Part shown: piece by piece, positions 1 to 27,059 of the stretch
How the letters are laid out: each line of letters opens with the position of its first letter
Numbering within the stretch: position 1 is the first letter of the stretch
Virus record (IMG/VR): IMGVR_UViG_3300047462_000741
Location: 1-27,781 of that record
Source: a virus
Length of the DNA stretch: 27,781 nucleotides
Reading direction: 5' to 3' (one strand)
Program-made: the position numbers and the translations under genes
Notes under the pieces: generated by a model
The model's database searches: none
Told to the model about the DNA's origin: nothing
Seen by the model: the letters and a program-made list of their open reading frames with translations, nothing else

Positions 1-336
1 CTAGCTTCGCGCCAGACGGCGCGCCGTTTGCAACAAAATGCGGCGATCCTCCGCCGAACATGCGCGATATAACCGCATCAAGGCGAGTTCGTCCCCCAGC
101 AGCGACCCGGCTTCGCCCGAGACCAGATAGCCGAGCGAGGTGTTAAGCACTTTCGCGATGCGTTCCATATTGTCCCGGACCTGACCGGCACGGTCGGTTT
201 CCCATTGCGCGATCGCCGAGCGGGAGACATTTAATTTCGCGGCGAATTCATCCTGCGTAAGATTTGCCGCCAGGCGGAGTGCACGAATACGGGCGCCGAC
301 GGATTCGACAGGAGGTTGCTTCTTGGTTGTCATCAC
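1..336 (-). CDS. XRE-family phage repressor (short, no peptidase domain)
   Basis: This is a cro/C1-type helix-turn-helix DNA-binding protein of about 110 aa. The HTH_3 domain covers roughly residues 16-71, with the characteristic segments LTQDEFAAKLNVSRSAIAQW and a trailing LGYLV. The remaining 40 residues form a short helical tail. There is no S24/LexA-type autocleavage domain, so RecA-stimulated self-cleavage, as in lambda CI, is not expected. The start is either GTG at 336 or the adjacent ATG at 333. An AAAGAG Shine-Dalgarno-like motif lies 2 nt upstream of the GTG and 5 nt upstream of the ATG, which favours the ATG. The stop TAG is at positions 1-3, so the gene is complete but touches the window edge. 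It is divergent from the HTH gene at 434 across a palindrome-rich region, so it most likely controls that promoter and its own. The prophage repressor role is inferred from this position. Confidence 0.88.
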   Translation of the reverse strand: MMTTKKQPPVESVGARIRALRLAANLTQDEFAAKLNVSRSAIAQWETDRAGQVRDNMERIAKVLNTSLGYLVSGEAGSLLGDELALMRLYRACSAEDRRILLQTARRLARS

Positions 337-370: not shown

Positions 371-417
371 TTAGTATTATTGACAATTTTAGTTATTTAT
401 ACTAACAAAAATTGTCA
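371..417. promoter_or_regulatory. Divergent promoter/operator region with two interleaved inverted repeats
   Basis: The AT-rich spacer between the repressor and the rightward HTH gene contains two inverted repeats. TTAGTAT (371-377) pairs with ATACTAA (399-405). TGACAATTTT (381-390) pairs with AAAATTGTCA (408-417), separated by 17 nt. A consensus -35 box TTGACA lies at 380-385 on the plus strand, with a weak -10 candidate TAACAA at 403-408 (17-nt spacing). The near-symmetry of the palindrome gives a similar CTGACA...TAACTA pair on the minus strand. The repeats overlap both promoters, as expected for operators bound by the dimeric XRE repressor. The promoter assignments are inferred by eye and the exact transcription starts are unknown. 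Confidence 0.6.
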
Positions 418-433
418 GATAAGGGAGAGCGCC

Positions 434-718
434 ATGCCACATGCAAGAACTTGGACGAAGCCGGCCGATGCGACGATTATAACAATGCGCGGGGACGGCG
501 CGAGTTGGGCTGCGATCAGCCGGGCACTGGGCCTTTCCAGAAACACCGTGATTGAACGCGGGCGAAGATTACGGGCGGCGGCGCCGGTGCGCGTTGCGGT
601 ACCGGTGGCGGAAAGACCGGAGATCGACGACCCGAACCGGCCGCCGCTCGCGGCCGGCCATCCGCTAACCTGGGGTTTGCTGACGAGCGAACCCTATCCG
701 GGGATCGATGCAAAATGA
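434..718 (+). CDS. Small HTH (GcrA-like) phage DNA-binding protein
   Basis: This 94-aa protein has a helix-turn-helix at about residues 22-46 (GASWAAISRALGLSRNTVIE) followed by an arginine-rich stretch. Its C-terminal tail contains RPPLAAGHPLTWGLL, a pattern I associate with small GcrA-like or resolvase-like HTH proteins in alphaproteobacterial prophages. The open frame extends upstream to 380, but that start lies inside the promoter/operator. The ATG at 434 has a GGGAGA ribosome binding site at the right distance, so I choose it. It is the first gene rightward of the repressor and overlaps the next gene by ATGA. A role as transcriptional activator of the late operon or as a Cro-like regulator is inferred from the fold and position. 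A small-terminase-like DNA-recognition role cannot be excluded. Confidence 0.72.
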   Translation: MPHARTWTKPADATIITMRGDGASWAAISRALGLSRNTVIERGRRLRAAAPVRVAVPVAERPEIDDPNRPPLAAGHPLTWGLLTSEPYPGIDAK

Positions 719-1218
719 CCCAGATAATTCGTTCGCGCCCGGTCGGGCAGGTTCTGGGTTCCGGTATGGGCCAAACAGCGCCCGTTGTGAGCCAAACACC
801 GCCACTGTCTCCCGCGGAGGTGATTGCCAGGCTGGAAGAGGCCGGCGCTGCTTTGCTCGCGATGCCCGCGCAGGGTTACACCACACATATGCGGCAGATG
901 CGTTTCGATATCGTTCACACGGCATTGGAAGCCTATGGCTGGGAAGCCCCGGCGCTGCGCCCGGCCCGGCCGAGCGCCGCGACGATTACGGCGATGGACG
1001 AGGCGTTCGGCTGGTTGCGGTTTATTCCCGAGGATTCGTTCGTGATACGGCGTATTTTAGGCGCGCGTGCGTTGGTGCATCCGCTGACGGCGCGGCATAT
1101 ATTTACGTGGCGGCGGCTGGCCGCCACGCTTGGTGCAGACCATAAATCCGTGCAGCGCTGGCACGGCAGCGGTATAACCATGATTGTTGAGGCGTTACGC
1201 CGGAATGGTGGCGCTTAA
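715..1218 (+). CDS. DUF6362-like phage protein
   Basis: This 167-aa protein is translationally coupled to the preceding HTH gene (ATGA overlap at 715-718). The first 40 residues look disordered. The C-terminal half has a conserved-looking block (ARALVHPLTARHIFTWRRL, then LGADHKSVQRWHGSGI) that reads as a helix-turn-helix-like segment near residues 130-155. The pattern resembles proteins labelled DUF6362 in alphaproteobacterial phages, for which I know no established function. Because it sits just before the large terminase and no recognisable small terminase is present elsewhere, a packaging-site recognition role is possible, but this is inference. The stop overlaps the convergent lipoprotein gene's stop by a few bases. 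Confidence 0.65.
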   Translation: MTQIIRSRPVGQVLGSGMGQTAPVVSQTPPLSPAEVIARLEEAGAALLAMPAQGYTTHMRQMRFDIVHTALEAYGWEAPALRPARPSAATITAMDEAFGWLRFIPEDSFVIRRILGARALVHPLTARHIFTWRRLAATLGADHKSVQRWHGSGITMIVEALRRNGGA

Positions 1219-1448
1219 TTGACGTGAATGCCAACTGAGACGCCCGGCGGCGGATAATAAGGCCGGGGCGGCGGCGGGTAATAGGGCCGCGGTGGCGGCG
1301 GATAGTACGGACGCGGCGGCGGCGCGTACACCACTTGTGGGGCGGGCCGGTAATATGCGACCGGGCGCGGCGGCGGCGCCACGATGCAGGCCGAGAGCGA
1401 CGCGGCCAGAATCAGCGATCCAGCCAGGCCGGCAATGAGATTCTTCAT
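1215..1448 (-). CDS. Proline/tyrosine-rich lipoprotein (moron-like)
   Basis: This 77-aa predicted lipoprotein has a Lys-containing N-terminus, a hydrophobic signal segment (residues 4-19) and a lipobox LSAC with the acylated Cys at position 21. The mature part is low complexity: an 8-residue unit RPYYPPPP is repeated about three times, flanked by similar PPPRP segments. An AAGGA ribosome binding site precedes the ATG by 8 nt on the minus strand. It is the only minus-strand gene inside the rightward transcription unit and it has its own sigma70-like promoter, which fits a lysogenically expressed moron that adds a surface lipoprotein to the host. A host-envelope role or superinfection exclusion is speculation. 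Similar short proline-rich lipoproteins also occur as ordinary chromosomal genes. Confidence 0.75.
   Translation of the reverse strand: MKNLIAGLAGSLILAASLSACIVAPPPRPVAYYRPAPQVVYAPPPRPYYPPPPRPYYPPPPRPYYPPPGVSVGIHVN
1245..1313 (-). repeat. 24-bp tandem repeat inside the lipoprotein gene
   Basis: About three imperfect copies of a 24-nt unit encode RPYYPPPP in the C-terminal half of the lipoprotein. The unit length is a multiple of three, so copy-number changes by slippage would keep the frame and lengthen or shorten the proline-rich stalk. Confidence 0.7.
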
Positions 1449-1692: not shown

Positions 1693-3054
1693 ATGGCTAC
1701 CGAAGCAGGGTTTCTAGGCTTTGCCCGGCAGGCTCTGCTGAATATTGGTCAAGCCCCGGCGCTGCACCATGAAATTCTCATTAAGCGTTTGCAAGCTATA
1801 GCGGATGCCGAATGCGACCGCTTGATGGTGCAGATGCCGCCGGGTTCGGCAAAGTCGACATACGGGTCCGTGTTGTTTCCGGCGTATTTTTTTGGCCGGT
1901 ATCCGGCGAGCCAGATTATTGCGACCGCGCACACGGCGTCGCTCGCGAATTATTTTGGCCGGCATGTGCGCAACACGGTGATTGAACATGCCGATTTGCT
2001 GGGGATAACGATTGCGAAAGAAAGCCGCGCGGCGGGACAGTTTTCGCTACAGGATGGCGGTGAATATTTTGCCGCCGGCGTGCGGGGGCCGATTACCGGG
2101 CGGCGGGCGGACCTGATTATTGTCGACGATCCGGTAAAGTCCTGGGCCGAAGCGGAAAGCAAAAGATATAGAGACGCGCTGTATGATTGGTACCGGGCGG
2201 AACTTTCGGCGCGGTTGAAACCGGGCGGCCGTATCGTGCTGATCATGACACGCTGGCATGAGGACGATCTGGCCGGCCGGCTGATGCAGACCGGCGATGC
2301 GTGGGCGCGATTGAGATTGCCCGCGCTGGCGGAGGCGGCGGATGAGTTGGGGCGCCGCGAAGGGGCGGCGCTGTGGCCGGAATGGCAGGATGAGGCGGCG
2401 ATTGCACGGCGGCGCAAGGATGTCGGCGAGCGGGCGTTTGCGGCGATGTATCAACAAAATCCGCGGCCGCCGGACCATGCGCTGTTCAATGTCGAGGCAA
2501 TAAGGATTCTGCCGGAGACGCCGGCCGCGCTGCGCAGCATACGGGCGTGGGATTTGGCGGCGAGCCTGGCTGCACCTGGCCGCAACCCGGATTATACGGT
2601 GGGCTTGAAATTGATAACGACGCCGGATGAGCAACTGGTGGTTTTGGATGTGATCAGGATGCAGGCATCGCCGGCGCAGGTGCAGGCCAAAATACTGGCG
2701 ACGGCAAAGGCGGATGGGCCGGGCACGATTGTCGCTCTGCCGCGCGATCCGGGCCAGGCGGGATTGGCGCAGGTTGCGATGTTAACGGATTTACTCGTGG
2801 GATTTACCATAAACGCAAGTCCCGAGACGGGCGCCAAGGTCATCCGTGCGATGCCGGCGGCGACGCGGGTGGATGCCGGCGATGTTGCGCTGCTGGCCGC
2901 ACCCTGGAACGAGAATTTCTTAAGCGAGCTGGCGGCGTTTCCGGATTCCAGCAAGGACGATCAGGTCGACGCGCTTTCACGGGCGGTGAACACGCTGGCG
3001 ACGACACATGAGACGGTGGCGCGGCGGTTGCACGTGCCGCTGCTGGGCCGCTAG
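1693..3054 (+). CDS. terL: Phage terminase large subunit
   Basis: This 453-aa DNA-packaging motor has an N-terminal ATPase and a C-terminal RNase H-like nuclease. Visible motifs are a Walker A-type loop PPGSAKST (residues 49-56), Walker B LIIVDDP (141-147, catalytic acidic pair 145-146) and a coupling motif TRWHEDD (186-192). Nuclease acidic residues appear as AWDLA (D287), RDPGQ (D352) and KDDQVDALS (D422-D426). The length is normal for the family. No clear Shine-Dalgarno precedes the ATG, but the N-terminus aligns in style with other terminases of this group (FARQALLNIG), so the start is reasonable. It opens the rightward late operon directly upstream of the portal gene. It hydrolyses ATP to translocate DNA into the prohead and cuts the concatemer. 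Confidence 0.95.
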   Translation: MATEAGFLGFARQALLNIGQAPALHHEILIKRLQAIADAECDRLMVQMPPGSAKSTYGSVLFPAYFFGRYPASQIIATAHTASLANYFGRHVRNTVIEHADLLGITIAKESRAAGQFSLQDGGEYFAAGVRGPITGRRADLIIVDDPVKSWAEAESKRYRDALYDWYRAELSARLKPGGRIVLIMTRWHEDDLAGRLMQTGDAWARLRLPALAEAADELGRREGAALWPEWQDEAAIARRRKDVGERAFAAMYQQNPRPPDHALFNVEAIRILPETPAALRSIRAWDLAASLAAPGRNPDYTVGLKLITTPDEQLVVLDVIRMQASPAQVQAKILATAKADGPGTIVALPRDPGQAGLAQVAMLTDLLVGFTINASPETGAKVIRAMPAATRVDAGDVALLAAPWNENFLSELAAFPDSSKDDQVDALSRAVNTLATTHETVARRLHVPLLGR

Positions 3055-8569: not shown

Positions 8570-10117
8570 ATGCCGATTGTGAGCCAGGGTGCGATTAATA
8601 CGACGGCGCTGATTGTGCCGGATTTGTACGTGCAGATTGTGGCGCCGCAGACGTTGCTGCTGAACGGGGTGTCGACCGATACGCTGGGCGTGGTCGGCTC
8701 GGCCAGTTGGGGGCCGGTGGGCGAACCGACGATCATCGGCGATATGGGCGGCTATGCGGTGGCGTTTGGGGCGGTGATGCCGCGCAAATACGATATGGGG
8801 ACGCAGGTTGCGACGGCGGTGCAACAGGGTGCGGCGAATTTCCGTTGCGTGCGGGTAACGGACGGGACGGACACCGCGGCTTCACTTTCGGTGCTGGGTG
8901 CGGTGAATTTTACCGCGGTCTATACCGGCAGTATGGGCAACCATCTCAGCCTGACATTTTCCGCCGGGTCGGCCGCCAATTCCTGGCGCCTGGCGGTGGC
9001 GATGCCGGGCCAGAGCCCGGAAGTTTTCGACAACATTACCGGCGCCGGGCCGGTATTCTGGAGCAACCTCGTCAACGCCGTGAATAATGGCGCCGGGGTG
9101 CTGCGCGGACCATCGAAACTGGTTATTGCGAGCGCAGTTTCCTCGACCGCGACGCCGGTTGCCGGGGCGTTTCCATTCAGTGCCGGAACGATCGGGTCGG
9201 ATGGCGCCGCCGGGTTGAACGCGGCGTCGCTGGTCGGCATCGATACGCTGCCGCGGCAAGGCATGTACGCGCTGCGGGGCCAGGGCTGCGCGCTGGCGCT
9301 GCTGGCCGATACCGACGACGCGACGCAATGGAGCGTGCAGACCGCGTTCGGCCTGTCCGAAAGCGTGTACATGATCCTGACCGGGCCGGCGGGGGATACG
9401 ATCAGCAATGCGGTGGCGGCCAAGGCGGCGGCCGGCATCGACAGCTATGCGGCGAAATTGATGTTCGGCGACTGGGTCTATTGGTATGACCAGGCGAATG
9501 CGCTGACCAGGCTGGTTTCGCCGCAGGGGTTTGTCGCCGGGCGGCTGGCGAATTTGTCGCCCGAACAATCGTCGCTGAACAAGCCGCTTTATGCGATCAC
9601 CGGCACGCAGAAATCCGGCCAGCCAGGTGTGGGTGTCGCCACGACGTACGCGACGGCGGATCTGTCCGCGTTGCTCTCGGCCGGGATCGACGTGATTGCC
9701 AATCCGCAGCCGGGCGGCGCTTATTGGGGCGTGCGCGGGGGGCACAACTCATCCTCCAATGCCGCAACGAACGGCGATAATTATACCAGGCTGACGAATT
9801 ACATCGCGCGCACATTGTCGTCCGGCATGGGGGTTTATGTCGGGCAACTGGTTAATTCGACATTGTTCCAGAATATCCTGGCGACGCTGATGGCATTTTT
9901 GAATGCGCTGCTGGGCCAGGGACTGCTCGGCAGCACCGATGGGTCGCTGCCGTTCGCCGTGGTATGCGATATTACCAACAATCCTGCGTCGCGCACGGGA
10001 CTTGGCTATGTGCAGGCGGATGTGCAGGTGCGGTATCAGGCGATCAACGAGAAATTCATTGTCAACGTGCAGGGCGGGCAGACCGTGCAGGTGAGCCGGC
10101 AGACGGTCAGCAATTAA
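8570..10117 (+). CDS. Contractile tail sheath protein
   Basis: This 515-aa protein of the Mu gpL/P2 FI-like sheath class shows that the virion is a myovirus. The N-terminal part has PDLYVQIVAP and LGVVGSASWGPVGEP, the usual start of sheath proteins, where a prior strand leads into the sheath handshake arm. The C-terminal region has GVRGGHNSSSNAATNGDNYT, then TRLTNYIARTLSSGMGVYVG and a final beta-strand segment (EKFIVNVQGGQTVQVSRQ), matching the conserved sheath C-terminal domain. A GGAGG ribosome binding site lies upstream of the ATG at 8570. The sheath polymerises around the tube and contracts to drive it through the host envelope. The tail tube gene follows immediately. Confidence 0.92.
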   Translation: MPIVSQGAINTTALIVPDLYVQIVAPQTLLLNGVSTDTLGVVGSASWGPVGEPTIIGDMGGYAVAFGAVMPRKYDMGTQVATAVQQGAANFRCVRVTDGTDTAASLSVLGAVNFTAVYTGSMGNHLSLTFSAGSAANSWRLAVAMPGQSPEVFDNITGAGPVFWSNLVNAVNNGAGVLRGPSKLVIASAVSSTATPVAGAFPFSAGTIGSDGAAGLNAASLVGIDTLPRQGMYALRGQGCALALLADTDDATQWSVQTAFGLSESVYMILTGPAGDTISNAVAAKAAAGIDSYAAKLMFGDWVYWYDQANALTRLVSPQGFVAGRLANLSPEQSSLNKPLYAITGTQKSGQPGVGVATTYATADLSALLSAGIDVIANPQPGGAYWGVRGGHNSSSNAATNGDNYTRLTNYIARTLSSGMGVYVGQLVNSTLFQNILATLMAFLNALLGQGLLGSTDGSLPFAVVCDITNNPASRTGLGYVQADVQVRYQAINEKFIVNVQGGQTVQVSRQTVSN

Positions 10118-10132
10118 AAGGGGTTCATAACG

Positions 10133-10561
10133 ATGCCGTATAATACGTTTTCGGTTGGTAGTGACTGCCAACTGGTGGTGATGGGGCCGTTCGGCCGGGT
10201 GGACCTGGCGCACGTGACGGGGTTTGAGGCGAGCCAGTTGACGCAGGCGGTGCGGGTGGACCGGCTGGACGGTGTGCAGCTCGGCGCCGAATTGCCGAAG
10301 GGCTGGAGCGGGGTTTTTACGCTGGACCGCGGATCCTCGGTGGCGGATGATTTTATTGCGGCGATCGAGCAGGCGTACCTGGCTGGGCAGTCGATCGCCG
10401 CGGGGACGTTGTATCAGTATGTTAACGAACCGGATGGCTCGACCTCGACCTATCAGTTCAGCGGGGCGGTGTTTAGGCTTTCCTCCGCCGGCGCTTACAG
10501 GGGGGATGCGGCGGTGGGACAGAAATTGCAATTTTATGCGTCCAGCCGGAAGCGCGTGTGA
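10133..10561 (+). CDS. Tail tube protein
   Basis: This 142-aa protein directly downstream of the sheath has the standard size for tail tube proteins. It is beta-rich (FSVGSDCQLVVMGPFGRVDL, YQFSGAVFRLSSAGAY) with one central helix (DDFIAAIEQAYLAGQS), the layout of the tube/Hcp-like beta-barrel fold. A loose AAAAGGGG ribosome binding site precedes the ATG. Its TGA overlaps the next gene's start (TGATG), giving coupling to the tail chaperone. It forms stacked hexameric rings inside the sheath. Identification rests on order, length and fold impression. Confidence 0.85.
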   Translation: MPYNTFSVGSDCQLVVMGPFGRVDLAHVTGFEASQLTQAVRVDRLDGVQLGAELPKGWSGVFTLDRGSSVADDFIAAIEQAYLAGQSIAAGTLYQYVNEPDGSTSTYQFSGAVFRLSSAGAYRGDAAVGQKLQFYASSRKRV

Positions 10562-10860
10562 TGACGGAGATTGTAGATAAAGCCGGGCGGCGGATTGCGC
10601 TGCGGCGGGTGGGGGTGGTTGAGCAGTTGCGGCTTTTTAAGGCGCTGGGGCCGGAGCTATCGGTGATCCCGCCATACTTGACCGGTGCGATGATTGCAGC
10701 CTCCGTTGCGATGATCGACGATGTGCCGTTGCCATTTCCCACCAGTGAGGCGGGGGTGGAGGCGGCCCTTGAGCGGATTGGGCTGGAGGCGATGGCCTTG
10801 ATTGCCGCGGCAACGGCCCGGCCAGCGGCGGATGTGCTGGAGGCGGCAGCGGGAAACTAG
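10561..10860 (+). CDS. Tail assembly chaperone (short form, gpG/E-like)
   Basis: This 99-aa, helix-rich, acidic protein is encoded immediately after the tube gene, the invariant place of tail assembly chaperones. The segment RRIALRRVGVVEQLRLFKAL at residues about 9-28 and the Ala-rich C-terminal helices fit P2 gpE-like and related 'tail assembly protein' families. ATG 10561 (TGATG overlap) is preferred over the GTG just before it. The final two sense codons and the preceding base form GGGAAAC immediately before TAG, a canonical -1 slippery heptamer. This short form should be the abundant product, with a longer frameshifted form made at low frequency. The chaperone coats the tape measure protein during tail assembly. 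Confidence 0.85.
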   Translation: MTEIVDKAGRRIALRRVGVVEQLRLFKALGPELSVIPPYLTGAMIAASVAMIDDVPLPFPTSEAGVEAALERIGLEAMALIAAATARPAADVLEAAAGN

Positions 10861-11027
10861 CCAGGCACTCTGAGTTAACGGATTGTTTGTATCTGGTTAA
10901 TTGCGGGGTGCCGTATGATGTGGCGTTTGGCCTGGATGAGGCGGAACGGATGGCTCATGTGGTGATTTTTGGTGAGTTGAGCGGCTTAAAATTCGATTGG
11001 AAGCGGTTTAGCTGGGAGGCAACATAA
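10561..11027 (+). CDS. Tail assembly chaperone, -1 frameshifted long form (gpGT/E+E'-like)
   Basis: Reading slips back one base at G GGA AAC (10851-10857) and continues in the -1 frame from CTA 10857 to TAA 11025-11027. This adds 56 codons after residue 99 and gives about 155 aa. The extension is a clean coding frame with helical, charged content: LTDCLYLVNCGVPYDVAFGL, then DEAERMAHVVIFGEL and LKFDWKRFSWEAT. It has no start codon or ribosome binding site of its own near its 5' end. The long form is expected to contact tape measure and tube proteins, as lambda gpGT does. The -1 mechanism is read directly from the heptamer and the overlapping frames. The fraction of slipping is unknown. Confidence 0.88.
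10851..10857 (+). promoter_or_regulatory. -1 programmed frameshift slippery site GGGAAAC
   Basis: The heptamer fits X XXY YYZ in the zero frame of the tail chaperone (G GGA AAC) and is followed directly by the TAG stop. Both tRNAs can re-pair after a -1 shift on GGG AAA. Sites of this type are known in the tail chaperone genes of many tailed phages. No clear stimulatory hairpin or upstream Shine-Dalgarno was identified by eye. Confidence 0.88.
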
Positions 11028-11039
11028 AAAACTTAAGGT

Positions 11040-11813
11040 TTGCTAATCATCTTGTGTTATACTGTGTGGAGATTTCATATTCGCATAGCACGAGTTAGGT
11101 ACAAATTGCGCGTATTTTTTAAGCGGCTTGGAATATTGTTTTGGTGGATATTCATAGGATATGGATTTCTACTTTTTGTACTTATATGTAATGCTTGGGT
11201 TTATCCTGAAGTATATGATGGCACTCGTTCGTCCTGGTCGGGGGAATCGCTAATAATTTATTTTCCCCTTCTTATCGTCGTCATCATCGTATGTCTATTC
11301 GTCAAACGTAAAGCCATTTACGCACCACTTTTTGTTTTGGCCCTAATCATTAGTGAATTCAGTTTTGGATTCATTCGCGCATTTGTCGTTGCCATGGAGT
11401 TTTGGACATTTAATTTTCCAGCAGCAACAGATGTACAGAATTACTGTCATCCAGTAAAATTTATCCAAGATGGGAGCATTTATAAGTTTGGGGTTTGTGG
11501 CGGCGAAGTGCCTGACGAAGATGGTCAAACCGGATTTGGCCCCGAGATTGTGTATGATACCAGCGGAGATATTGCCTATAGCACGTATAGTTTCTCAGGC
11601 GATGGCCAGATATTCAAACCGGAGCGCAAAGAATTCGTCGATGCCGTAAGAAAATTTTATAATGACGATCCTGAAGAGGCATTTGAAGTTGCGGATTTTC
11701 AGACCACACCAATTTATGGCCATTTTTATGTAGTTGTTACGGATGATGTCGGTGGTGGATTTACGGACACATACGGGCCGCCACCCTATAACAAAGAAAA
11801 TCCGTATAAATGA
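11040..11813 (+). CDS. Unknown multi-pass membrane protein in an AT-rich insert
   Basis: This protein of up to 257 aa has a TTG start at 11040 with AAGG too close to be ideal. Downstream TTG or GTG codons (for example GTG 11064) are alternatives. A basic N-terminus (RFHIRIARVRYKLRVFFKRL) is followed by three predicted membrane segments at about residues 31-53, 70-88 and 93-117. An acidic soluble domain (130-257) has Cys136 and Cys153 and a C-terminal Pro/Tyr-rich tail. Base composition is clearly more AT-rich than the neighbours, indicating separate acquisition. It sits where a tape measure gene would be expected and does not resemble one (no long helical repeats). I recognise no family. Moron, superinfection-exclusion or immunity roles are all possible. 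Confidence 0.6.
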   Translation: MLIILCYTVWRFHIRIARVRYKLRVFFKRLGILFWWIFIGYGFLLFVLICNAWVYPEVYDGTRSSWSGESLIIYFPLLIVVIIVCLFVKRKAIYAPLFVLALIISEFSFGFIRAFVVAMEFWTFNFPAATDVQNYCHPVKFIQDGSIYKFGVCGGEVPDEDGQTGFGPEIVYDTSGDIAYSTYSFSGDGQIFKPERKEFVDAVRKFYNDDPEEAFEVADFQTTPIYGHFYVVVTDDVGGGFTDTYGPPPYNKENPYK

Positions 11814-11832
11814 TTTGTGAGAAGGTTTGTGT

Positions 11833-12013
11833 ATGAACGACCCATCAAATCCTTACGAAAATAGATCGGAATTTTATATTTATCCGAGAAAACCGCAAAA
11901 AAATTATTTTTGATAATGGTCGTATCCCTTTATTTAGAAATATAGCGCCAGCAGATGAAAGATTTTATGTTGCTGTCAAGTACCTTTGGCTTAATGTTCG
12001 GTGGCGCTTATAA
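11833..12013 (+). pseudogene. Small AT-rich ORF with an apparent +1 frameshift at an A7 run
   Basis: An ATG at 11833 with a GAGAAGG ribosome binding site 8 nt upstream opens a 26-codon frame ending at TGA 11911-11913. Immediately before the stop is a run of seven A (11897-11903). If one A is skipped, reading continues as a coding-like frame (FDNGRIPLFRNIAPADERFY, then VAVKYLWLNVRWRL) to TAA 12011-12013, for a total of 59 aa. This looks like a small gene broken by a one-base insertion in the homopolymer, or a sequencing error. A programmed shift is less likely because it would be +1. It follows the membrane protein gene by 19 nt and shares its AT-rich composition. Function is unknown. Confidence 0.5.
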
Positions 12014-12038
12014 TTTGAGGCACCTAAATATTTCCAAT

Positions 12039-12872
12039 ATGGCTTTTCCTTACGGTATGAGCCAGCAAGATACCGAGAATTTTGAGGCGGGGTTTGCCTG
12101 GGCCAAAGCGCAGATGCATGACCCTAATTCTACATTTTACAAACAGGCCAAGGCTTTTGGTTTGGGCGTCGAATCTCAGCCGAAGCGTTCCGGCTCACTC
12201 GCGCCGCGCGGGCGATTTGTGGCGCCGCGGAACACAAAAAATGGTTCGAACCATGCCAGCAATGACGGTGGCGCGGCGCCATTCGGCAAGCCGGCAAACG
12301 GTGGCATATATGATGCGATCTCCGGTCCTGGCGCGCCGGCGATGTTCGCCGTGCTTGACTTGATGCCTATGCTGTATGGTAGGGGGGCCGCTTCTGCCGG
12401 CGCGGCTTTTTTTCCGGCACGAAGTGAAAGAGCCGCGGCCGCAGAAGGAACTCTGGCCTCCGGCGTGCGTTGGCATCGCCAGGTAAAGTCGATGAATGGC
12501 GCGAAACCATTAGCGCCGCGGGGCGCCGGGTTGCAGCCACGCTTCAGCCAATCCGCAAGCGTGGATGCCCGATACGCCATGCCGGGAGCAGCCCAAACGG
12601 CGCCGGCCGGGGTGACGATGCAGCGCGGAATAAGCGGCAATTTCTCACTTGAAATGCGCCGTCCGTTTTCAGCGCAAACATCTTCCGGCGTCGATGATAT
12701 GGTTCCGCAAGCCCAGGGATCTGCGTTAGGCAATGATTATATCAAACGCGATGAACTCGGGGGATTGATGGAAGATCACCTCAACCGGCAGGCGCGGCTG
12801 CCGTCCTCCGGTTATACCGGCTTCGATCCGTGGCTGAGCCCGGCCTGGCCCGGACGAAAACTCCCGAACTGA
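12039..12872 (+). CDS. Possible C-terminal remnant of the tape measure protein
   Basis: The open frame begins at ATG 11955, but its first 28 codons lie in AT-rich sequence that overlaps another ORF. ATG 12039 or 12057 is a better start, although neither has a good ribosome binding site. The product (about 277 aa) is low complexity, rich in Ala, Gly, Pro, Ser and Arg, and has no long helical repeats. The C-terminal 35 residues look conserved (LMEDHLNRQARLPSSGYTGF, then DPWLSPAWPGRKLP), a style I associate with the ends of tape measure proteins in related prophages. It lies exactly between the tail chaperone and gene U, the tape measure slot. Contractile tails usually need a tape measure of more than 500 aa, so this is probably truncated at its 5' end by the AT-rich insert. 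It may alternatively be a complete, very short or unrelated protein. Confidence 0.5.
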   Translation: MAFPYGMSQQDTENFEAGFAWAKAQMHDPNSTFYKQAKAFGLGVESQPKRSGSLAPRGRFVAPRNTKNGSNHASNDGGAAPFGKPANGGIYDAISGPGAPAMFAVLDLMPMLYGRGAASAGAAFFPARSERAAAAEGTLASGVRWHRQVKSMNGAKPLAPRGAGLQPRFSQSASVDARYAMPGAAQTAPAGVTMQRGISGNFSLEMRRPFSAQTSSGVDDMVPQAQGSALGNDYIKRDELGGLMEDHLNRQARLPSSGYTGFDPWLSPAWPGRKLPN

Positions 12873-12879
12873 GGTTTGC

Positions 12880-13569
12880 ATGAGCAATGTGGTGGTGACC
12901 CTGGGCGGCGTGCCGTTCCGGGATTTCGAGGTGCCGGAAAAAATCAGTTTTGGCGGGGCGCAGCGCGTGGCGGTGAACCGGCTGATCGGCGGCGGCCGGG
13001 TGGTGAATGCGCTGGGCGAGGATGACGGGGAAATCCATTTCGGTGGCGTATTCAGCGGCGATGACGCGGCGGCGCGCGCGCAGTTGCTGGATGCGGCGCG
13101 GACCCTCGGCACGGCGATCCCGCTCGCCTGGGGCAGGTTTTTTTACATGGTCGTTCTGGCGGAATTTGCCGCGGAATATACCAAGCCGTGGTGGATTCCT
13201 TTCGCCGTGCGCTGCGTGGTGGCCACCGATCCGGTGGCGGCCCTGGCCGGCCTGGTGACACCGGTGGCGGACCTCATCGGCAACGACATTGCGGCCGCGG
13301 CATCATTGAGCGTGCAGGCCGGGATTTCGCTGCTTGGCTTGAGCGGCAGCAATCCGGCTTATGCGGCGGCGCAGGCCACCATCGGTTCCGCGATCGCGTC
13401 CAATGGCTTGGCACTCAGCAATGGCGCGGATGGATTGGCGGCGGCGAACGATGCGGCCGGCGGCGTGGCGGGGATGGGTGAGATTATGATTGCGTCATCG
13501 CAACTTGCGGCACTCGGCGGCATCAACGGCTATGTCAACCGGGCGGCCTCGCTCGCGGCGCAATTATGA
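12880..13569 (+). CDS. P2 gpU-like tail protein with C-terminal extension
   Basis: This 229-aa protein has an N-terminal 110-residue part that matches the P2 gpU layout. It contains VTLGGVPFRDFEVPEKISFG, then NRLIGGGRVVNALGEDDGEI, a helix (AARAQLLDAARTLGTAIPL) and a strand ending FAVRCVV. The remaining half is an Ala/Gly-rich extension that may form a hydrophobic helix or a baseplate-linked linker. A GAGG ribosome binding site is 7 nt upstream of the ATG. The gene order U-X-D with the two following genes is that of P2-like tails. In P2 gpU is a tail completion/terminator protein. The extension is longer than in P2 and its purpose is unknown. Confidence 0.75.
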   Translation: MSNVVVTLGGVPFRDFEVPEKISFGGAQRVAVNRLIGGGRVVNALGEDDGEIHFGGVFSGDDAAARAQLLDAARTLGTAIPLAWGRFFYMVVLAEFAAEYTKPWWIPFAVRCVVATDPVAALAGLVTPVADLIGNDIAAAASLSVQAGISLLGLSGSNPAYAAAQATIGSAIASNGLALSNGADGLAAANDAAGGVAGMGEIMIASSQLAALGGINGYVNRAASLAAQL

Positions 13570-13757
13570 TGAGCGGACAGACGGTTACGGTTGCGGGCGG
13601 CAATCTGTTTGCGCTGGCGGCGCAATATTTGAATGACGCAACGCAATGGATCCGCATCGCGCAGGCGAACAATTTGTCCGACCCGGTGTTGCAGGGCGTT
13701 TGCACCTTGGTGATTCCGCCAGTGAACGCCGCGGCCGGAGGCGGCATTGCCGGTTGA
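13566..13757 (+). CDS. LysM-like tail protein (P2 gpX-like)
   Basis: This protein of about 63 aa starts at ATG 13566, overlapping the gpU-like stop (ATGA). An adjacent ATG at 13569 is an alternative. The sequence QTVTVAGGNLFALAAQYL and WIRIAQANNLSDPVL, followed by LVIPP, is a single LysM-type motif of the sort found in P2 gpX. Such proteins sit at the tail hub region and may help cell wall contact. Its 3' end overlaps the hub gene by 11 nt. The small size, motif and place in the U-X-D order make the call fairly safe. Confidence 0.82.
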   Translation: MMSGQTVTVAGGNLFALAAQYLNDATQWIRIAQANNLSDPVLQGVCTLVIPPVNAAAGGGIAG

Positions 13758-14721
13758 CCGGCCGCAGCCGCGCGTGACCATCGGCGGTGTTGTGGTGCCG
13801 GGGGCGATGGCGCTACAGGTTGAGAGCCTTGGGTATTTCGCCGCCGATCGGTTCAGGGTGGATTTTGCGATCGGCGCCGGCGACGTTTTCACGGCCGGCT
13901 TTTTTGCCGGACTTGGCGGCCAGGTGATCGGCATCGAAGCCGCGGTCGATCTCGGTTATGTGAGTTTGATCACCGGGCAGATCGATAATATCCGGATCAA
14001 TTTTTTGAGACATATCGCGACGCTGAGTGGGCGGGATTTATCGGCGCGGATGATCGATGCCGAGATTGCCGAGACGTTCAATAACCAGACATCGAGCCAG
14101 ATTGCGGCGGCGATTGCGGCGCGGCACGGTTTGAGCGCGAACGTGACGGCGACCAGCACGCAAGTGGGGCAGTATTACGAGCTTGACCATGCGCGCAGTG
14201 CGCTGGGGCTGAATGCGCGTGCGACGACCGAGTGGAATTTGCTGACGCAGCTCGCGCAGATCGAGAATTTTGCGTTGTCCGTGGTGGGCACGACGCTTAA
14301 TTTTGGGCCGCCGGCCGTTCCAGTTCCGGTGTTTTTAAACCCGCTCGACATGATCTGTTTGGAGTTCGATATGGCGGCGTCCATTCCAACATCCGCGACG
14401 GTACACTCATGGAGCACGCGCAACAAAGCGGCAATTACGCAAAGCGCCGGCGGCAATGCGGGCGTTACGATTATTCGGCCGAATCTGACGACGGCCCAGG
14501 CCAATGCGCTGGCGGCGAACCATTTATCGGCACTGGCGCGGCACAAAACCGTATTGACGGCGACAATGCCGGGCGATGTGACGCTGACGCCGGCAGCGCG
14601 GATACTGTTTACTGGTACGGAGTCGGTTTTCGATCAAACATACGGCATCGATATGATTTCCCGCACGCTGAGCGCGGCGCATGGGTTTACCCAAATCGTT
14701 CGCGCCTACGCGCTGAATTAG
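13747..14721 (+). CDS. Baseplate hub protein (P2 gpD-like, late control D family)
   Basis: This 324-aa hub protein starts at TTG 13747. The rare start is supported by GGAGG at 13737-13741, five bases upstream, and by overlap with the preceding gene. It resembles the Phage_GPD family: an N-terminal beta region (VVVPGAMALQVESLGYFAAD), LITGQIDNIRINFLRHIATL and the block GRDLSARMIDAEIAETFNNQ. A late part contains DQTYGIDMISRTLSAAHGF, a typical hub C-terminal pattern. It forms the trimeric central hub that bridges tube and spike. The spike gene V follows 10 nt later, as in P2. Confidence 0.85.
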   Translation: MPVDRPQPRVTIGGVVVPGAMALQVESLGYFAADRFRVDFAIGAGDVFTAGFFAGLGGQVIGIEAAVDLGYVSLITGQIDNIRINFLRHIATLSGRDLSARMIDAEIAETFNNQTSSQIAAAIAARHGLSANVTATSTQVGQYYELDHARSALGLNARATTEWNLLTQLAQIENFALSVVGTTLNFGPPAVPVPVFLNPLDMICLEFDMAASIPTSATVHSWSTRNKAAITQSAGGNAGVTIIRPNLTTAQANALAANHLSALARHKTVLTATMPGDVTLTPAARILFTGTESVFDQTYGIDMISRTLSAAHGFTQIVRAYALN

Positions 14722-14731
14722 CGAGCCTTTA

Positions 14732-15277
14732 ATGGACCGGTTCTGGAACGAAGTTAAGGCGCGGGCGGGTGGGCTGGACGGGATGGCAGGTGTTGCCAGG
14801 TTCGGGTTGGTTGCGAGTTTCGATCCAAAGTCCTACGCGGCAAAAGTGCTGATCCAGCCGGAAAATGTTTTAAGCGGCTGGTTGCCGATTACTGCCGCCT
14901 GGGTGGGCGCCGGCTGGGGCATGGCGGCGCCGCTGACGCCGGGCGACCAGGTGCTGGTGCTGGCGCAGGAAGGCGACGCCGAACAGGGCGTGATTATCGG
15001 CTGCGTGTGGTCGGCGGTGGATCAGCCGATGGCGGCGCCGAGCGGTGAGTTATGGTTACGGCATCAAACGGGAAGCTTTTTGAAATTGCATAATGACGGG
15101 ACGATTGCTTTGCAGGCGCCGGTGGTGAATATTGCCGGGAACCTCGTGGTGAGCGGCGATATTTCCGACCAGGCTGGGGCGCATGGCACGCTGGCGGCGC
15201 TGCGAAATGCGCATGACACGCACGAACATGCGGACCCACAAGGCGGTGTCACGGGCCTGCCCACGGTGACCGTGTAA
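14732..15277 (+). CDS. Baseplate assembly/spike protein V with iron-binding HxH motif
   Basis: This 181-aa protein of the P2 gpV/phage baseplate V family has a short N-terminal helix and an OB-fold (FGLVASFDPKSYAAKVLIQP, then TPGDQVLVLAQEG). A beta-prism segment (LHNDGTIALQAPVVNIAGNL) follows, then the apex sequence HDTHEHADPQGG at residues 161-172. In P2 gpV-type spikes, histidines of an HxH motif from three subunits hold an iron ion at the tip. Here His164 and His166 are the natural candidates. The protein pierces the outer membrane at contraction. The stop overlaps the next start (TAATGG context), in the V-W-J-I order of P2. Confidence 0.9.
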   Translation: MDRFWNEVKARAGGLDGMAGVARFGLVASFDPKSYAAKVLIQPENVLSGWLPITAAWVGAGWGMAAPLTPGDQVLVLAQEGDAEQGVIIGCVWSAVDQPMAAPSGELWLRHQTGSFLKLHNDGTIALQAPVVNIAGNLVVSGDISDQAGAHGTLAALRNAHDTHEHADPQGGVTGLPTVTV

Positions 15278-15639
15278 TGGCCGATCTGGCGGTGCAATTC
15301 GGCGGTGATTTGAGCATCAGCCCGGCGGGCGATATTGCCCTGGTTGACGGAACGGATCTCACGCAGCAGCGGGTGCTGCGCCGGATGCTGACAAACGCCG
15401 GCGATTATATCTGGCAACTCGGCTATGGCGCCGGGTTGGGGCAGTTTATCGGACAGCCCGGCGCACCGGCGGCGATCAACGGTGTCGCGCGCACGCAGAT
15501 GCTGCGGGAAGCGGCGGTCGCGCAAACGCCGGCGCCGGTGGTCACCACTGCGGCGGCGACGGACGGCACGGTGACACTGACATTGCGTTATGCCGATGCG
15601 GCGACCGGACAGACCAATCTCGTTTCATTTTCAGTGTAG
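15277..15639 (+). CDS. Baseplate wedge protein W (gp25-like)
   Basis: This 120-aa protein overlaps the spike gene by one base. It has a beta-strand start (DLAVQFGGDLSISPAGDIAL) and a helix with QQRVLRRMLTNAGDYIWQLG, the standard gpW/gp25 lysozyme-like wedge pattern. It continues GYGAGLGQFIGQPG and ends in a beta-strand. In the P2/T4 system this protein sits at the inner edge of the baseplate and starts sheath assembly. It follows V and precedes J, supporting the assignment. Confidence 0.84.
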   Translation: MADLAVQFGGDLSISPAGDIALVDGTDLTQQRVLRRMLTNAGDYIWQLGYGAGLGQFIGQPGAPAAINGVARTQMLREAAVAQTPAPVVTTAAATDGTVTLTLRYADAATGQTNLVSFSV

Positions 15640-15646
15640 GTTTTAA

Positions 15647-16771
15647 ATGCAGTTATCGTTGCAGAATTTCTCCACGCTGGTGGAGGGCATGGCGGCTGCC
15701 GTCCAGGGCGCGGCGCAGGCGTTGCTGGATTTGACGGTAGGCTCCGTGCTGCGCGCGATTCTGGAGGCCAATGCGTCGCTTGCGTTGTGGATGCAATGGC
15801 TGATCGTGCAGGTGCTGGCGACCACGCGGCTGGCGACGAGTTCCGGCGCGGATTGCGATAGTTTTGGCGCGGATTTCGGGTTTGTCCGGCTGCCGGCCGT
15901 GGCGGCGGAAGGCGATGTCACCTTTGCGCGCTTTACGCCCGGCGTGGCGGCGTTCATTCCGCTTGGGACCAATGTTTCCACCACCGCCAATACGCAGAGC
16001 TTTACCGTAACGGCCGACCCCGCAAATGCCGCGTTCAGCGCCGCGGCGGGGGGATATACGGTCGCCGCCGGGGTCGCCAGCATCACGGTGGCGGTGGCGG
16101 CGGCAATTGCGGGCAGTGCCGGAAACATCCAGCCTGGCGCGATAACGGTGTTGAGTTCGGCGGTCGCCGGCGTGGATACCGTAACGAATGGCGCGGCCCT
16201 CACAGGTGGTCTGGACGCGGAAAGCGACGCGGCCTTCCGGGCGCGCTTCGCCAACTATCTTGCCAGTCTGTCGCGCGCCACCAATCTTGCGATCGGTGCT
16301 GCCATCACCGGCATTCAGCAGGGGCTGAGCTACGCGATCGATGAGAACATCAATCAGGCCGGCGCCGTGCAGATGGGACATTTTGTCGTTACGGTCGACG
16401 ATGGTTCCGGCGACCCGCTGGCAGCGTTACTGAGCACCGTCCAGCAGGCGGTGGATGCGGTGCGTCCGGTTGGCAGCAGTTTCGCGGTTCAGGGTCCGGT
16501 TGTGGCGTTGGCAAACGTTTCGATGACGCTGACAACCGTGACCGGCGCCGCGTCGCAGACGATTGTGGCGGCGGTGGCAGGCGCCATTGAAACCTACATC
16601 GCCGGCCTCGCGATCGGCGATACTTTGAATTACACCAGGCTGGCGCAACTGGCGTACGGGGCGTCGGCCACCGTTACGAATGTTTCGGCGGTTCTGCTGA
16701 ATGGCGCGACGGCGGATTTGATCCCGCCGCTGTTCGGGGTGATCCGCGCCGGCACCGTGACGGTGGCCTGA
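15647..16771 (+). CDS. Baseplate J-like protein
   Basis: This 374-aa protein of the phage baseplate J family forms the wedge that links gpW to gpI and the fibres. Its N-terminus is helical (LSLQNFSTLVEGMAAAVQGA and LLDLTVGSVLRAILEANASL). A beta-rich middle contains GTNVSTTANTQSFTV and IQPGAITVLSSAVAGVDTV, and then comes the diagnostic block LTGGLDAESDAAFRARFANY. The later part has GHFVVTVDDGSGDPLAAL and a C-terminal helical bundle. The stop is 4 nt before gene I. The ribosome binding site is weak (TAGG), so translation may be coupled to W. Confidence 0.9.
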   Translation: MQLSLQNFSTLVEGMAAAVQGAAQALLDLTVGSVLRAILEANASLALWMQWLIVQVLATTRLATSSGADCDSFGADFGFVRLPAVAAEGDVTFARFTPGVAAFIPLGTNVSTTANTQSFTVTADPANAAFSAAAGGYTVAAGVASITVAVAAAIAGSAGNIQPGAITVLSSAVAGVDTVTNGAALTGGLDAESDAAFRARFANYLASLSRATNLAIGAAITGIQQGLSYAIDENINQAGAVQMGHFVVTVDDGSGDPLAALLSTVQQAVDAVRPVGSSFAVQGPVVALANVSMTLTTVTGAASQTIVAAVAGAIETYIAGLAIGDTLNYTRLAQLAYGASATVTNVSAVLLNGATADLIPPLFGVIRAGTVTVA

Positions 16772-16775
16772 CGCC

Positions 16776-17432
16776 ATGACCGGCGATACCAACGATATGC
16801 TGGCGCGGCTGAAACTGGTTCTGCCGGTGCGGTGGTTCGGCGATGTCACGCCGGTGCTGGATGCGGTGCTGAGCGGCCTGGCGAGCGCCTGGAGCAATCT
16901 GTATGGGTTGCTTGCAAACGTCAGGCTGCAGGCGCGGATTGCGACCGCGAGCGGCGTGTTTCTGGACATTGCGGCGGGCGATTATTGCGGTTCCGGCCTG
17001 GTGCGCCGGGTGGGCGAGCCCGATGCCGCCTACAGTGCCCGCATCCGTGTCAATCTGCTGGCGCCGCGCGCGACACGCGCCGGCGTGATTGCGGCACTTG
17101 TCAATTTGACAGGCCGGACGCCGGTTGTTTTCGAGCCGTTGAATGCCACCGATACCGGCGGCTATAACGTCAATCTCGGTTATAATGTGACCGGCGGCTA
17201 TGGTTCGGAAAATCTGCCGTTCCAGTTTTTCGTTACGGCGTACCGGCCGAACGCCACGCCGGTTAGCAATGCCGGCGGTTATAACGCGGGGCCGGGCGGT
17301 TATAACACCGCGCCGATGTTCTATGCGGATCTCACGCAATTTGCCGGGGCCGTTTCCGATGCGGAGATTTATGCCGCGGTCGCCGGGGTATTGCCGACGA
17401 GCACTGTCGCCTGGACCAGAATTTCTAACTGA
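16776..17432 (+). CDS. P2 gpI-like baseplate/tail protein
   Basis: This 218-aa protein directly after J is in the gpI place. It has an N-terminal helical part (NDMLARLKLVLPVRWFGDVT and LASAWSNLYGLLANV), then RIATASGVFLDIAAGDYCG, a pattern shared with wedge proteins that carry fibres. A C-terminal beta part contains four GGYN-type motifs within about 60 residues (GGYNVNLGYNV, GGYNAGPGGYN). It completes the wedge and provides the fibre anchor. The tail fibre gene follows 9 nt later with a GAGGAACC ribosome binding site. Identification is by order and fold impression. The GGYN repeats are unusual relative to what I know of gpI. Confidence 0.75.
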   Translation: MTGDTNDMLARLKLVLPVRWFGDVTPVLDAVLSGLASAWSNLYGLLANVRLQARIATASGVFLDIAAGDYCGSGLVRRVGEPDAAYSARIRVNLLAPRATRAGVIAALVNLTGRTPVVFEPLNATDTGGYNVNLGYNVTGGYGSENLPFQFFVTAYRPNATPVSNAGGYNAGPGGYNTAPMFYADLTQFAGAVSDAEIYAAVAGVLPTSTVAWTRISN

Positions 17433-21910: not shown

Positions 21911-21920
21911 GAGCACATAT

Positions 21921-26227: not shown

Positions 26228-26554
26228 ATGGACACGGACTCCATGATGATGTTGCGCACGGATATTTTGGCTTTACGGAGCGAGGTGACCGCCATTCTGC
26301 AGGATATCGGCGTGCTCGAAGCGAAATCCGATTCACTGGAAGCGTGGCGCGTGCGCTACCTTGTGCAGGAAGATCAATTGATCAGCAAGCTGTTTGCGAA
26401 AATCGATGAATTGGTGATGAGTTTGAGCGACATGCGGGCCGAAATTTCGCGCATCCGCGGTGAGCGCGACGCCGAACGGCGCGCCAGTACGATGATTATC
26501 AGCTTGCTCTCCGCGGCCTGCGGCGGGCTGATTGCGAGTTTGTTCCGTGGCTGA
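26228..26554 (+). CDS. XhlA-like membrane protein (lysis accessory or holin)
   Basis: This 108-aa protein has a long, charged N-terminal coiled coil (residues about 5-85, with MRAEISRIRGERDAERRAS as its end) and one C-terminal membrane segment (about 87-106, MIISLLSAACGGLIASLF). This topology matches the XhlA family, which works with a holin in PBSX-type lysis. It starts 9 nt after the esterase gene, and its TGA overlaps the endolysin's GTG region. It could equally be a single-TM holin in its own right. Confidence 0.68.
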   Translation: MDTDSMMMLRTDILALRSEVTAILQDIGVLEAKSDSLEAWRVRYLVQEDQLISKLFAKIDELVMSLSDMRAEISRIRGERDAERRASTMIISLLSAACGGLIASLFRG

Positions 26555-27059
26555 TTTTTCGCGTTGTTTTGCCTTCACGCTCGGCGCCGAAGGCGGCTAT
26601 TCCAGCAACCCGGCGGACCCCGGCAACTGGACCGGCGGGGCGGTCGGCCACGGCGAACTGCACGGCACCAAATTCGGGATCAGTGCGGCGGCGTATCCAA
26701 AAATCGACATCGCCAACCTGACCCTGGATGCCGCGCAACAGATTTATAGAAAAGACTATTGGGCGGCCCTGCATGGCGATGAATTGCCGTTGCCGATCGC
26801 CCTCGTGGCGTTCGATGCGGCGGTGAATGCCGGGCCGCGCCGTGCGGTGCTGTGGCTGCAGCAGGCGGTGGGCACCGGCGATGACGGCGTGCTGGGCCCC
26901 GCCACCATTGCAGCTTTGAACAATGGAAATGCGATTGCCATCGCGCGCGAGGCCTTGGTGCGGCGGCTGGATTTTTCCACGCGCCTGCCGGCGTGGCAGA
27001 CCTTTGGCCTCGGCTGGTCGCGCCGGATGATCGCGCTGGCCGGTGAGCTTGCCGGGTGA
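26547..27059 (+). CDS. Endolysin, GH108 family muramidase with peptidoglycan-binding C-terminus
   Basis: This 170-aa protein cleaves peptidoglycan, GH108 enzymes being N-acetylmuramidases. The N-terminal domain has FTLGAEGGYSSNPADPGNWT with the catalytic Glu15 in EGGY. The family's TKFGISAAAYP and AAQQIYRKDYWAAL follow, then LVAFDAAVNAGPRRAVLWLQ. The C-terminal part contains GTGDDGVLGPATIAAL, a peptidoglycan_binding_3 pattern. A GTG start at 26547 is chosen because the domain begins right after it and it overlaps the upstream gene. A TTG at 26532 would add only five residues. There is no signal peptide or anchor, so export must rely on a holin. Confidence 0.9.
   Translation: MADFSRCFAFTLGAEGGYSSNPADPGNWTGGAVGHGELHGTKFGISAAAYPKIDIANLTLDAAQQIYRKDYWAALHGDELPLPIALVAFDAAVNAGPRRAVLWLQQAVGTGDDGVLGPATIAALNNGNAIAIAREALVRRLDFSTRLPAWQTFGLGWSRRMIALAGELAG

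What the first reader, a model, noticed from the sequence alone, without database searches (positions are those of the whole stretch)
11028..12872. The tape measure slot is taken by an AT-rich block and a short 3' ORF
Between the chaperone and gpU-like genes a contractile tail should have a long tape measure gene. Here there is an AT-rich stretch with a membrane protein, a broken small ORF, and a 277-305 codon Ala/Gly/Pro-rich ORF with no long helical repeat but a conserved-looking C-terminus. The simplest reading is that foreign DNA replaced the 5' part of the tape measure gene, which would make the tail defective. The alternative is a truly short tape measure. At about 1.5 angstrom per residue, 305 residues would give a tail of only about 45 nm.
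Basis: partly seen in the sequence, partly recalled or inferred. Interest (0 to 1): 0.75.

Follow-up and report, generated by a model that had tools for sequence, protein, structure and literature searches.

The report
Short tape measure carrying exchangeable toxin
In a phage-like particle that acetic-acid-family bacteria inherit from parent to daughter, the gene that normally sets tail length has shrunk to a small ruler protein onto which toxin-like enzyme domains with matching protector genes are swapped; the copy in this window keeps the ruler and the protector but its toxin part is naturally broken.

Summary
Between the tail-assembly chaperone and the gpU-like gene lies an AT-rich membrane-protein gene, a 26-codon ORF fragment and a 277-305-codon ORF, with no long tape measure gene (TMP). 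This is not a wrecked TMP. Dozens of related loci carry a short protein here that shares the window's C-terminus. In more distant members it also keeps a normal TMP N-terminus (hhalign 97%), with a Pro/Ala-rich middle replacing the helical core. Ten of ten host genomes tested have one clear copy; in four it has moved ~15 kb, beyond the endolysin. Many window-like loci fuse a variable N-terminal domain to this ruler (three types). Each type travels with its own upstream protein predicted to be membrane-bound or secreted, sometimes in tandem or as orphans. This resembles a polymorphic toxin-immunity system. Against its nearest relative, the window lost the toxin domain (+1 A, 389-bp deletion) but keeps a chimeric protector gene and the ruler. 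The element shows no recognised integrase, sits at fixed chromosomal sites, co-varies with neighbouring host genes and is under purifying selection: a domesticated, GTA- or PBSX-like particle. Toxicity, immunity and particle formation are inferred, not shown.

The parts
1..336 (-). XRE/HTH_3 regulator; left boundary of the fixed chromosomal site
   Evidence: Pfam HTH_3 1.5e-13; same gene in same place in 9 host genomes
380..1218 (+). two small conserved genes (112 and 167 aa; DUF6362/HTH-like)
   Evidence: Pfam DUF6362; conserved order XRE-112aa-167aa-terminase
1693..3054 (+). large terminase
   Evidence: Pfam Terminase_6N/6C; 71% identical to Acidocella MAG
8570..10117 (+). tail sheath
   Evidence: phrog_23 1.2e-44
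10133..10561 (+). tail tube-like protein
   Evidence: phrog_12993 9e-37 (function unknown there; named tube by position); dN/dS 0.01-0.13
10558..11027 (+). tail assembly chaperone with programmed -1 frameshift (slippery GGGAAAC 10851-10857; 56-aa extension to 11027)
   Evidence: phrog_20383; GGGAAAC in 93 and AAAAAAC in 6 of 100 TAC genes (redundant set), extensions 50-69 aa
11040..11813 (+). immunity-like membrane protein, three hydrophobic segments, C-terminal part with two invariant Cys; chimera of two tandem copies seen in L002
   Evidence: profile match to partner genes of stand-alone cassettes, 98.6%, E 1e-15
11833..11913 (+). remnant of the start of the type I N-terminal domain; frame ends after A7 run 11897-11903 (A6 in L002)
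11994..11995 (+). junction of a 389-bp deletion relative to L002 that removes most of the type I domain
12039..12872 (+). ruler protein (short TMP-like), 277 codons from ATG 12039; the open frame starts at 11955 but its first codons lie before the deletion junction in a shifted frame
   Evidence: dN/dS 0.43-0.46 vs L002; minimal relatives 244-358 aa
12195..12215 (+). motif A (SLAPRGR), junction between cargo domain and ruler
12732..12869 (+). conserved C-terminal domain ARLPxSGxTGFDPxLSPAWxG
12880..13569 (+). gpU-like tail protein
   Evidence: phrog_21362 4.5e-35 (function unknown there; named by position)
13566..17432 (+). LysM/X-like, hub gpD-like, baseplate V, W, J and I-like genes
   Evidence: identity of the X-like and I-like genes by position
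26532..27059 (+). endolysin (glycosyl hydrolase 108), right part of the element
   Evidence: Pfam 1e-21

Best explanation
The window is a domesticated, vertically inherited contractile phage-like element of Acetobacteraceae. Its tape measure gene has been reduced to a short, low-complexity ruler with a conserved C-terminus. In the window's subclade the ruler has gained an exchangeable N-terminal enzyme domain, encoded with a partner gene just upstream. Most likely mechanism (inferred): the ruler lies in the tail tube with its C-terminus at the assembly machinery; the N-terminal domain rides along as cargo and is released into the periplasm of a target cell on contraction; the partner, predicted to be membrane-anchored or secreted, protects the producer. 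In this copy the cargo domain is naturally dead, while the protector gene and the ruler persist. Shown: homology, domain swapping, partner coupling, the lesions, fixed location, co-variation with host genes, purifying selection. Inferred: packaging, toxicity, immunity, periplasmic site of action, killing.
For: (1) Short TMP: more distant loci have slot ORFs of 316-405 aa whose N-terminus matches long TMPs (hhalign 97.4%, E 1e-11), whose C-terminus matches weakly (P 6e-5), and which share the window-type C-terminus. (2) One strong copy in each of 10 host genomes, in 4 of them relocated downstream of the endolysin. (3) Modularity: N-domain type I (A3, A5), type II (A4) or type III before motif A, or none. 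(4) Coupling: type I with a 3-segment membrane protein, type II with a secreted ~160-aa protein, type III with NAGPA plus small membrane protein; tandem copies in L002, L014, L046; orphan type III-like partners in L014 and L190. (5) Type I plus homologous membrane genes recur as a stand-alone cassette between portal-like and capsid-like genes in unrelated phage contigs (partner homology 98.6%). (6) Intact type I domains are under purifying selection, dN/dS 0.13-0.17. (7) Lesions and chimeric partner in the window. (8) Vertical inheritance: two conserved sites, Mantel r 0.34-0.96, p 0.0002-0.03; sheath and tube dN/dS below 0.15.
Against: No enzyme fold was identified: the deeper type I model (pLDDT 79) has no significant PDB or BFVD match, and similarity to Ntox44 is weak (hhalign 24%). 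Type II is called lysozyme-like only from its motifs (no Pfam or PDB hit). No type I domain was found in 397 sampled Acetobacteraceae genomes, so it may be confined to uncultured lineages. One allele group (L052, L205) has an open type II frame but a frameshifted partner, against strict addiction. The TMP homology of the window protein itself rests on its C-terminus, through intermediates. The vertical-inheritance test used host genomes, not the window's own host, which is unknown.
Confidence: 0.62

Rival explanations
1. Foreign DNA replaced the 5' part of a normal tape measure gene, leaving a defective tail.
For: AT-rich block with a fragmentary ORF; no long TMP in the slot.
Against: Relatives without any AT-rich block have the same short ORF; one strong copy per host genome; purifying selection and conserved chaperone frameshift.
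Confidence: 0.07
2. The N-terminal domain is not a toxin but a cell-entry enzyme that opens the envelope for DNA delivery, and the upstream gene blocks superinfection or self-damage during the producer's own expression.
For: Type II looks like a peptidoglycan hydrolase by motif; TMPs can carry such domains (established knowledge); partners predicted to be membrane-bound or secreted.
Against: Many relatives have no such domain at all; swapping of unrelated domains with matched partners and orphan partners fits antagonism better.
Confidence: 0.2
3. The slot protein is no longer a tape measure but a cargo/effector that inherited the TMP's packaging end; tail length is set some other way or by an unrecognised protein.
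For: No helical core; the gene can leave the tail operon; TMP-related CIS effectors without ruler role are known (Sle1, PMC13277306).
Against: Retained position after the chaperone in most loci and fairly even length of the minimal form, 244-358 aa.
Confidence: 0.3
4. An ordinary active temperate phage family rather than a domesticated element.
For: Complete-looking head, tail, packaging and lysis genes; listed as a viral contig in IMG/VR.
Against: Fixed chromosomal sites, no recognisable integrase or replication genes in the flanks read by eye, co-variation with neighbouring host genes.
Confidence: 0.1

Closest known systems
Sle1-type tape-measure-related effectors of actinobacterial contractile injection systems (PMC13277306, 2026)
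   Same: A TMP-related cargo protein with variable functional domain; one member forms an effector-immunity pair.
   Different: Sle1 has a coiled-coil TMP-like N-terminus, a variable C-terminus and a DUF4157 partner in a headless tail particle. Here the variable domain is N-terminal, the constant part is the TMP C-terminus, the middle is Pro/Ala/Arg-rich and the element has head and packaging genes.
Phage tail length tape measure proteins (phrog_28; long form in related L031, L029 and phage phiKX1)
   Same: Same slot after the chaperone; homologous N- and C-termini through intermediates.
   Different: 270-430 aa or less instead of 500-740; no helical/coiled-coil core; N-terminus lost or replaced in the window's subclade.
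Domesticated phage particles: gene transfer agents (RcGTA) and PBSX-type killer particles (established knowledge)
   Same: Vertically inherited head-and-tail module with lysis gene, no integrase recognised, purifying selection.
   Different: Contractile-tailed Acetobacteraceae family with tail cargo domains and partner genes; DNA transfer or killing not tested.
Polymorphic toxin-immunity systems (e.g. Ntox44, PF15607)
   Same: Swappable domain on a constant carrier, adjacent immunity-like gene, tandem and orphan copies.
   Different: Swapped domain at the N-terminus of a tail protein; no Pfam toxin domain recognised; Ntox44 similarity weak.
Shared phage-like contigs of Sphagnum metagenomes aligning to Acetobacteraceae genomes (PMC12142844, 2025)
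   Same: Probably similar phage-like regions in Acetobacteraceae, thought to be temperate or degraded prophage.
   Different: The passages read report neither the tape measure change, the cargo domains nor fixed-site inheritance; no sequence comparison was made here.

Membership tests
Phage tape measure protein (TMP) | Gene in the slot directly after the frameshifted tail assembly chaperone and before gpU/hub genes | tested here: met
   Window and most relatives; moved in 4 genomes
Phage tape measure protein (TMP) | Sequence homology to known TMPs | tested here: inconclusive
   Intermediates match long TMPs at the N-terminus (97.4%) and weakly at the C-terminus (65%); the window-type C-terminal profile matches weakly (57.6%); no direct HMM hit
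Phage tape measure protein (TMP) | Long helical/coiled-coil core whose length sets tail length | tested here: not met
   Region is Ala/Gly/Arg/Ser/Pro-rich low complexity, total 277-305 codons; helix content judged from composition only
Polymorphic toxin-immunity system | Constant carrier region with exchangeable toxin domain | tested here: met
   Three domain types or none on the same ruler
Polymorphic toxin-immunity system | Adjacent cognate immunity gene, type-matched | tested here: met
   Type-specific partners; one exception with frameshifted partner
Polymorphic toxin-immunity system | Demonstrated toxicity and neutralisation | not testable with these tools
   Needs expression assays
Ntox44 (PF15607) | Profile match to the Ntox44 domain | tested here: not met
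   No hmmscan hit; hhalign 23.9% over 73 columns
Gene transfer agent / domesticated phage element | Fixed chromosomal location and vertical inheritance | tested here: met
   9 genomes at HisPhos-FGAH-GT-XRE (RecX-RplT on the other side in several), 8 at GroESL (Ppk on the other side where the contig reaches); Mantel tests
Gene transfer agent / domesticated phage element | No integrase or replication module | tested here: inconclusive
   None recognised by eye among flanking ORFs in 4 genomes plus the synteny set; no integrase HMM scan was run
Gene transfer agent / domesticated phage element | Purifying selection on structural genes | tested here: met
   dN/dS tube 0.01-0.13, sheath 0.02-0.14
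Gene transfer agent / domesticated phage element | Packages and transfers host DNA | not testable with these tools
   Needs particle sequencing
Sle1-type CIS effector | Coiled-coil N-terminus, DUF4157 partner next to sheath gene | tested here: not met
   Variable domain is N-terminal; slot neighbours are TAC and gpU; no DUF4157 hit among the proteins scanned

The most novel reading that the evidence does not exclude
In a vertically inherited, head-bearing contractile particle of Acetobacteraceae, the tape measure protein itself has become the effector carrier: a short disordered ruler whose N-terminus is a swappable periplasm-acting toxin with a type-matched protector. A phage tail is thereby turned into a kin-discriminating weapon that may also package DNA.
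Probability: 0.45. Interest if true: 0.85.

Novelty: new variant of a known kind. Interest (0 to 1): 0.72.

Why it matters
Tape measure proteins are thought to need a length-defining helical core. Here is a natural family in which the core is gone, the rest is conserved, and the gene can even leave the tail operon, so the ruler rule can be tested directly. If the N-terminal domains are delivered, the family is a new route by which phage tails evolve into toxin injectors, with the variable part on the opposite end from Sle1. A gpU-like profile matched 158 of 397 sampled Acetobacteraceae genomes (distant relatives included), so the element may be an overlooked, widespread bacterial nanomachine.

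Tried and rejected
Relatives of the window's own genome could not be drawn because it is a virus record. Pfam, PHROGs, NCBIfam and PDB sequence searches gave nothing convincing for the slot protein, the N-domains or most partners. The first type I model from 7 sequences was poor (pLDDT 50) and its matches meaningless; the 15-sequence model was good (78.6) but matched nothing in PDB or BFVD. Ntox44 membership considered and rejected. A long TMP elsewhere was sought with one long TMP as query in 17 viral records and by ORF listing of 4 longer contigs: none in the short-TMP family. Complete loss of the gene in genomes with an empty slot was considered and rejected, since the gene is relocated in four (G247, G375, G210, G163) and matched on another contig in a fifth (G279). 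The name 'GcrA' used in work notes for 380-718 is not supported by Pfam.

Full report
Observation. The layout described is in the sequence. After sheath, tube and a frameshifting chaperone (TAC), the slot holds a 257-codon AT-rich membrane-protein gene (11040-11813), a 26-codon ORF fragment (11833-11913) and an ORF of 305 codons from 11955, or 277 from ATG 12039, before the gpU-like gene. There is no long tape measure gene (TMP) elsewhere in the window.

Relatives. A gpU-like query found 30 viral contigs, a C-terminal query 55 loci (overlapping) and a profile scan 10 genome contigs, mostly Acetobacteraceae MAGs. In close relatives the slot ORF ends in the same ~46 residues and most carry two short motifs (xVAPxR and PSIAPxR) about 215-280 and 85-112 residues from the end, with low-complexity sequence between. 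In more distant Acetobacteraceae loci the slot ORF starts like a normal TMP and ends with the same C-terminus, with a Pro/Ala-rich middle. Profile comparison links these N-termini to long TMPs (97.4%, E 1e-11) and the C-termini weakly. Long TMPs of 501-742 aa sit in the slot of the most distant relatives and after the chaperone of the isolated phage phiKX1. Myovirus-type particles induced from acetic acid bacteria have 156 nm tails (PMC8566455). The series long TMP, short TMP with TMP N-terminus, short TMP without it, is therefore natural and the window protein belongs to its end.

Conservation. Ten of ten host genomes tested have one strong copy of the C-terminal domain (E 1e-11 to 1e-21). 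In G375, G210, G247, G163 and G279 the slot is empty (gap 180-236 bp). In the first four the gene lies ~15 kb downstream, after the endolysin; in G279 the match is on another contig. The slot protein evolves fast (dN/dS 0.27-0.72) but stays open, while tube and sheath are tightly constrained (0.01-0.14). The chaperone slippery heptamer is GGGAAAC in 93 and AAAAAAC in 6 of 100 sequences, some of them duplicates.

Cargo and partner. Many window-like loci have 150-250 extra residues before motif A. Type I (window remnant, L002, L004, L013, L016, L026, L067, L188, L190) has the pattern F-x2-GG-x2-DLQR...WGVP...SAS. Type II (L009, L014, L052, L065) has a RESGDxY...GAYQM pattern that I read as lysozyme-like; no search confirmed that. 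Type III is in L027 and L046. Other relatives have none. The upstream gene matches the type: a membrane protein with about three hydrophobic segments and a C-terminal part with two invariant cysteines for type I; a secreted ~160-aa protein for type II; a NAGPA-domain protein plus a small membrane protein for type III. By the positive-inside rule the type I partner's C-terminal part should be periplasmic (inference). Partners are duplicated in L002, L014 and L046, and type III-like partners lie as orphans behind the slot gene in L190 and L014. Type I also occurs as a separate gene with tandem membrane genes between portal-like and capsid-like genes in other phage contigs (those two labels are from my reading); the two partner families are homologous (98.6%, E 1e-15). 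Intact type I domains are under purifying selection (0.13-0.17). This is the signature of a toxin-immunity pair; activity is untested.

The window allele. Against L002 (83-92% DNA identity by block), the window has one chimeric copy instead of two tandem partner genes, one extra A in a homopolymer at 11897-11903, and a 389-bp deletion at 11994/11995 that removes most of the type I domain. The extra A could be a sequencing error; the deletion is unlikely to be. The ruler remains open and resembles the minimal relatives. L003 and L023 have damaged both toxin domain and partner; L046 has a broken type III frame with partners kept; L052 and L205 are an exception, with an open type II frame but a frameshifted partner.

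The element. In host genomes the same gene block lies either next to histidine phosphatase, N-formylglutamate amidohydrolase, an ~850-aa protein and XRE, with RecX-RplT on the far side in several (9 genomes), or next to GroESL, with Ppk on the far side where the contig reaches (8 genomes) (several gene names from my reading of the sequences). The window and toxin-bearing contigs show the XRE-type left end. Pairwise identities of element genes track those of neighbouring host genes (Mantel r 0.34-0.96, p 0.0002-0.03). No integrase was recognised by eye, but no HMM scan for one was run. A gpU-like match occurs in 158 of 397 sampled Acetobacteraceae genomes, including distant relatives that may be ordinary prophages. 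This fits a domesticated particle of the GTA or PBSX kind.

Mechanism. I commit to this: the short protein is the tape measure's descendant, packaged in the tube, and in the window's subclade it carries an N-terminal enzyme into target cells, against which the partner protects the producer. Homology, coupling, lesions and inheritance are shown; packaging, delivery, toxicity and protection are inferred. Fold searches did not identify the type I enzyme and it was not found in 397 sampled genomes.

Known context. TMP-related effectors of actinobacterial contractile injection systems (Sle1) are the closest functional parallel (PMC13277306), but with the variable part at the other end and no head. 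Similar phage-like contigs of Acetobacteraceae were noted in peat moss (PMC12142844). My searches of an open-access library found no description of this family; the library is incomplete.

Noticed in passing
G375, G210, G247, G163 (loci L145-L170); G279: The short TMP-like gene has left its slot and sits ~15 kb downstream, after the endolysin, in at least four genomes; in G279 the match is on another contig.
   Followed up: yes
L194-L202: Stand-alone cassette of type I domain plus one to three tandem membrane-protein genes between portal-like and capsid-like genes of unrelated phage contigs.
   Followed up: partly
L190:4480-6024, L014:7461-7904: Orphan partner genes of type III (NAGPA protein, small membrane proteins) between slot gene and gpU-like gene.
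   Followed up: partly
L052:6210-7331, L011:1306-2427: Pectate-lyase-like genes (Pect-lyase_RHGA_epim hit in L052; L011 similar by eye) inserted between slot gene and gpU-like gene.
   Followed up: no
G255, G309, G365, G119, G219, G176, G023, G022: Element sits next to groES/groEL and before ppk, a second fixed chromosomal site.
   Followed up: partly
window 1215-1448 (-): Small Pro/Tyr-rich lipoprotein-like gene where many relatives have an outer-membrane barrel-like protein upstream of the terminase.
   Followed up: no
window 19355-26218: Three long conserved tail-fibre-like genes (851, 718, 713 aa) in a row.
   Followed up: no
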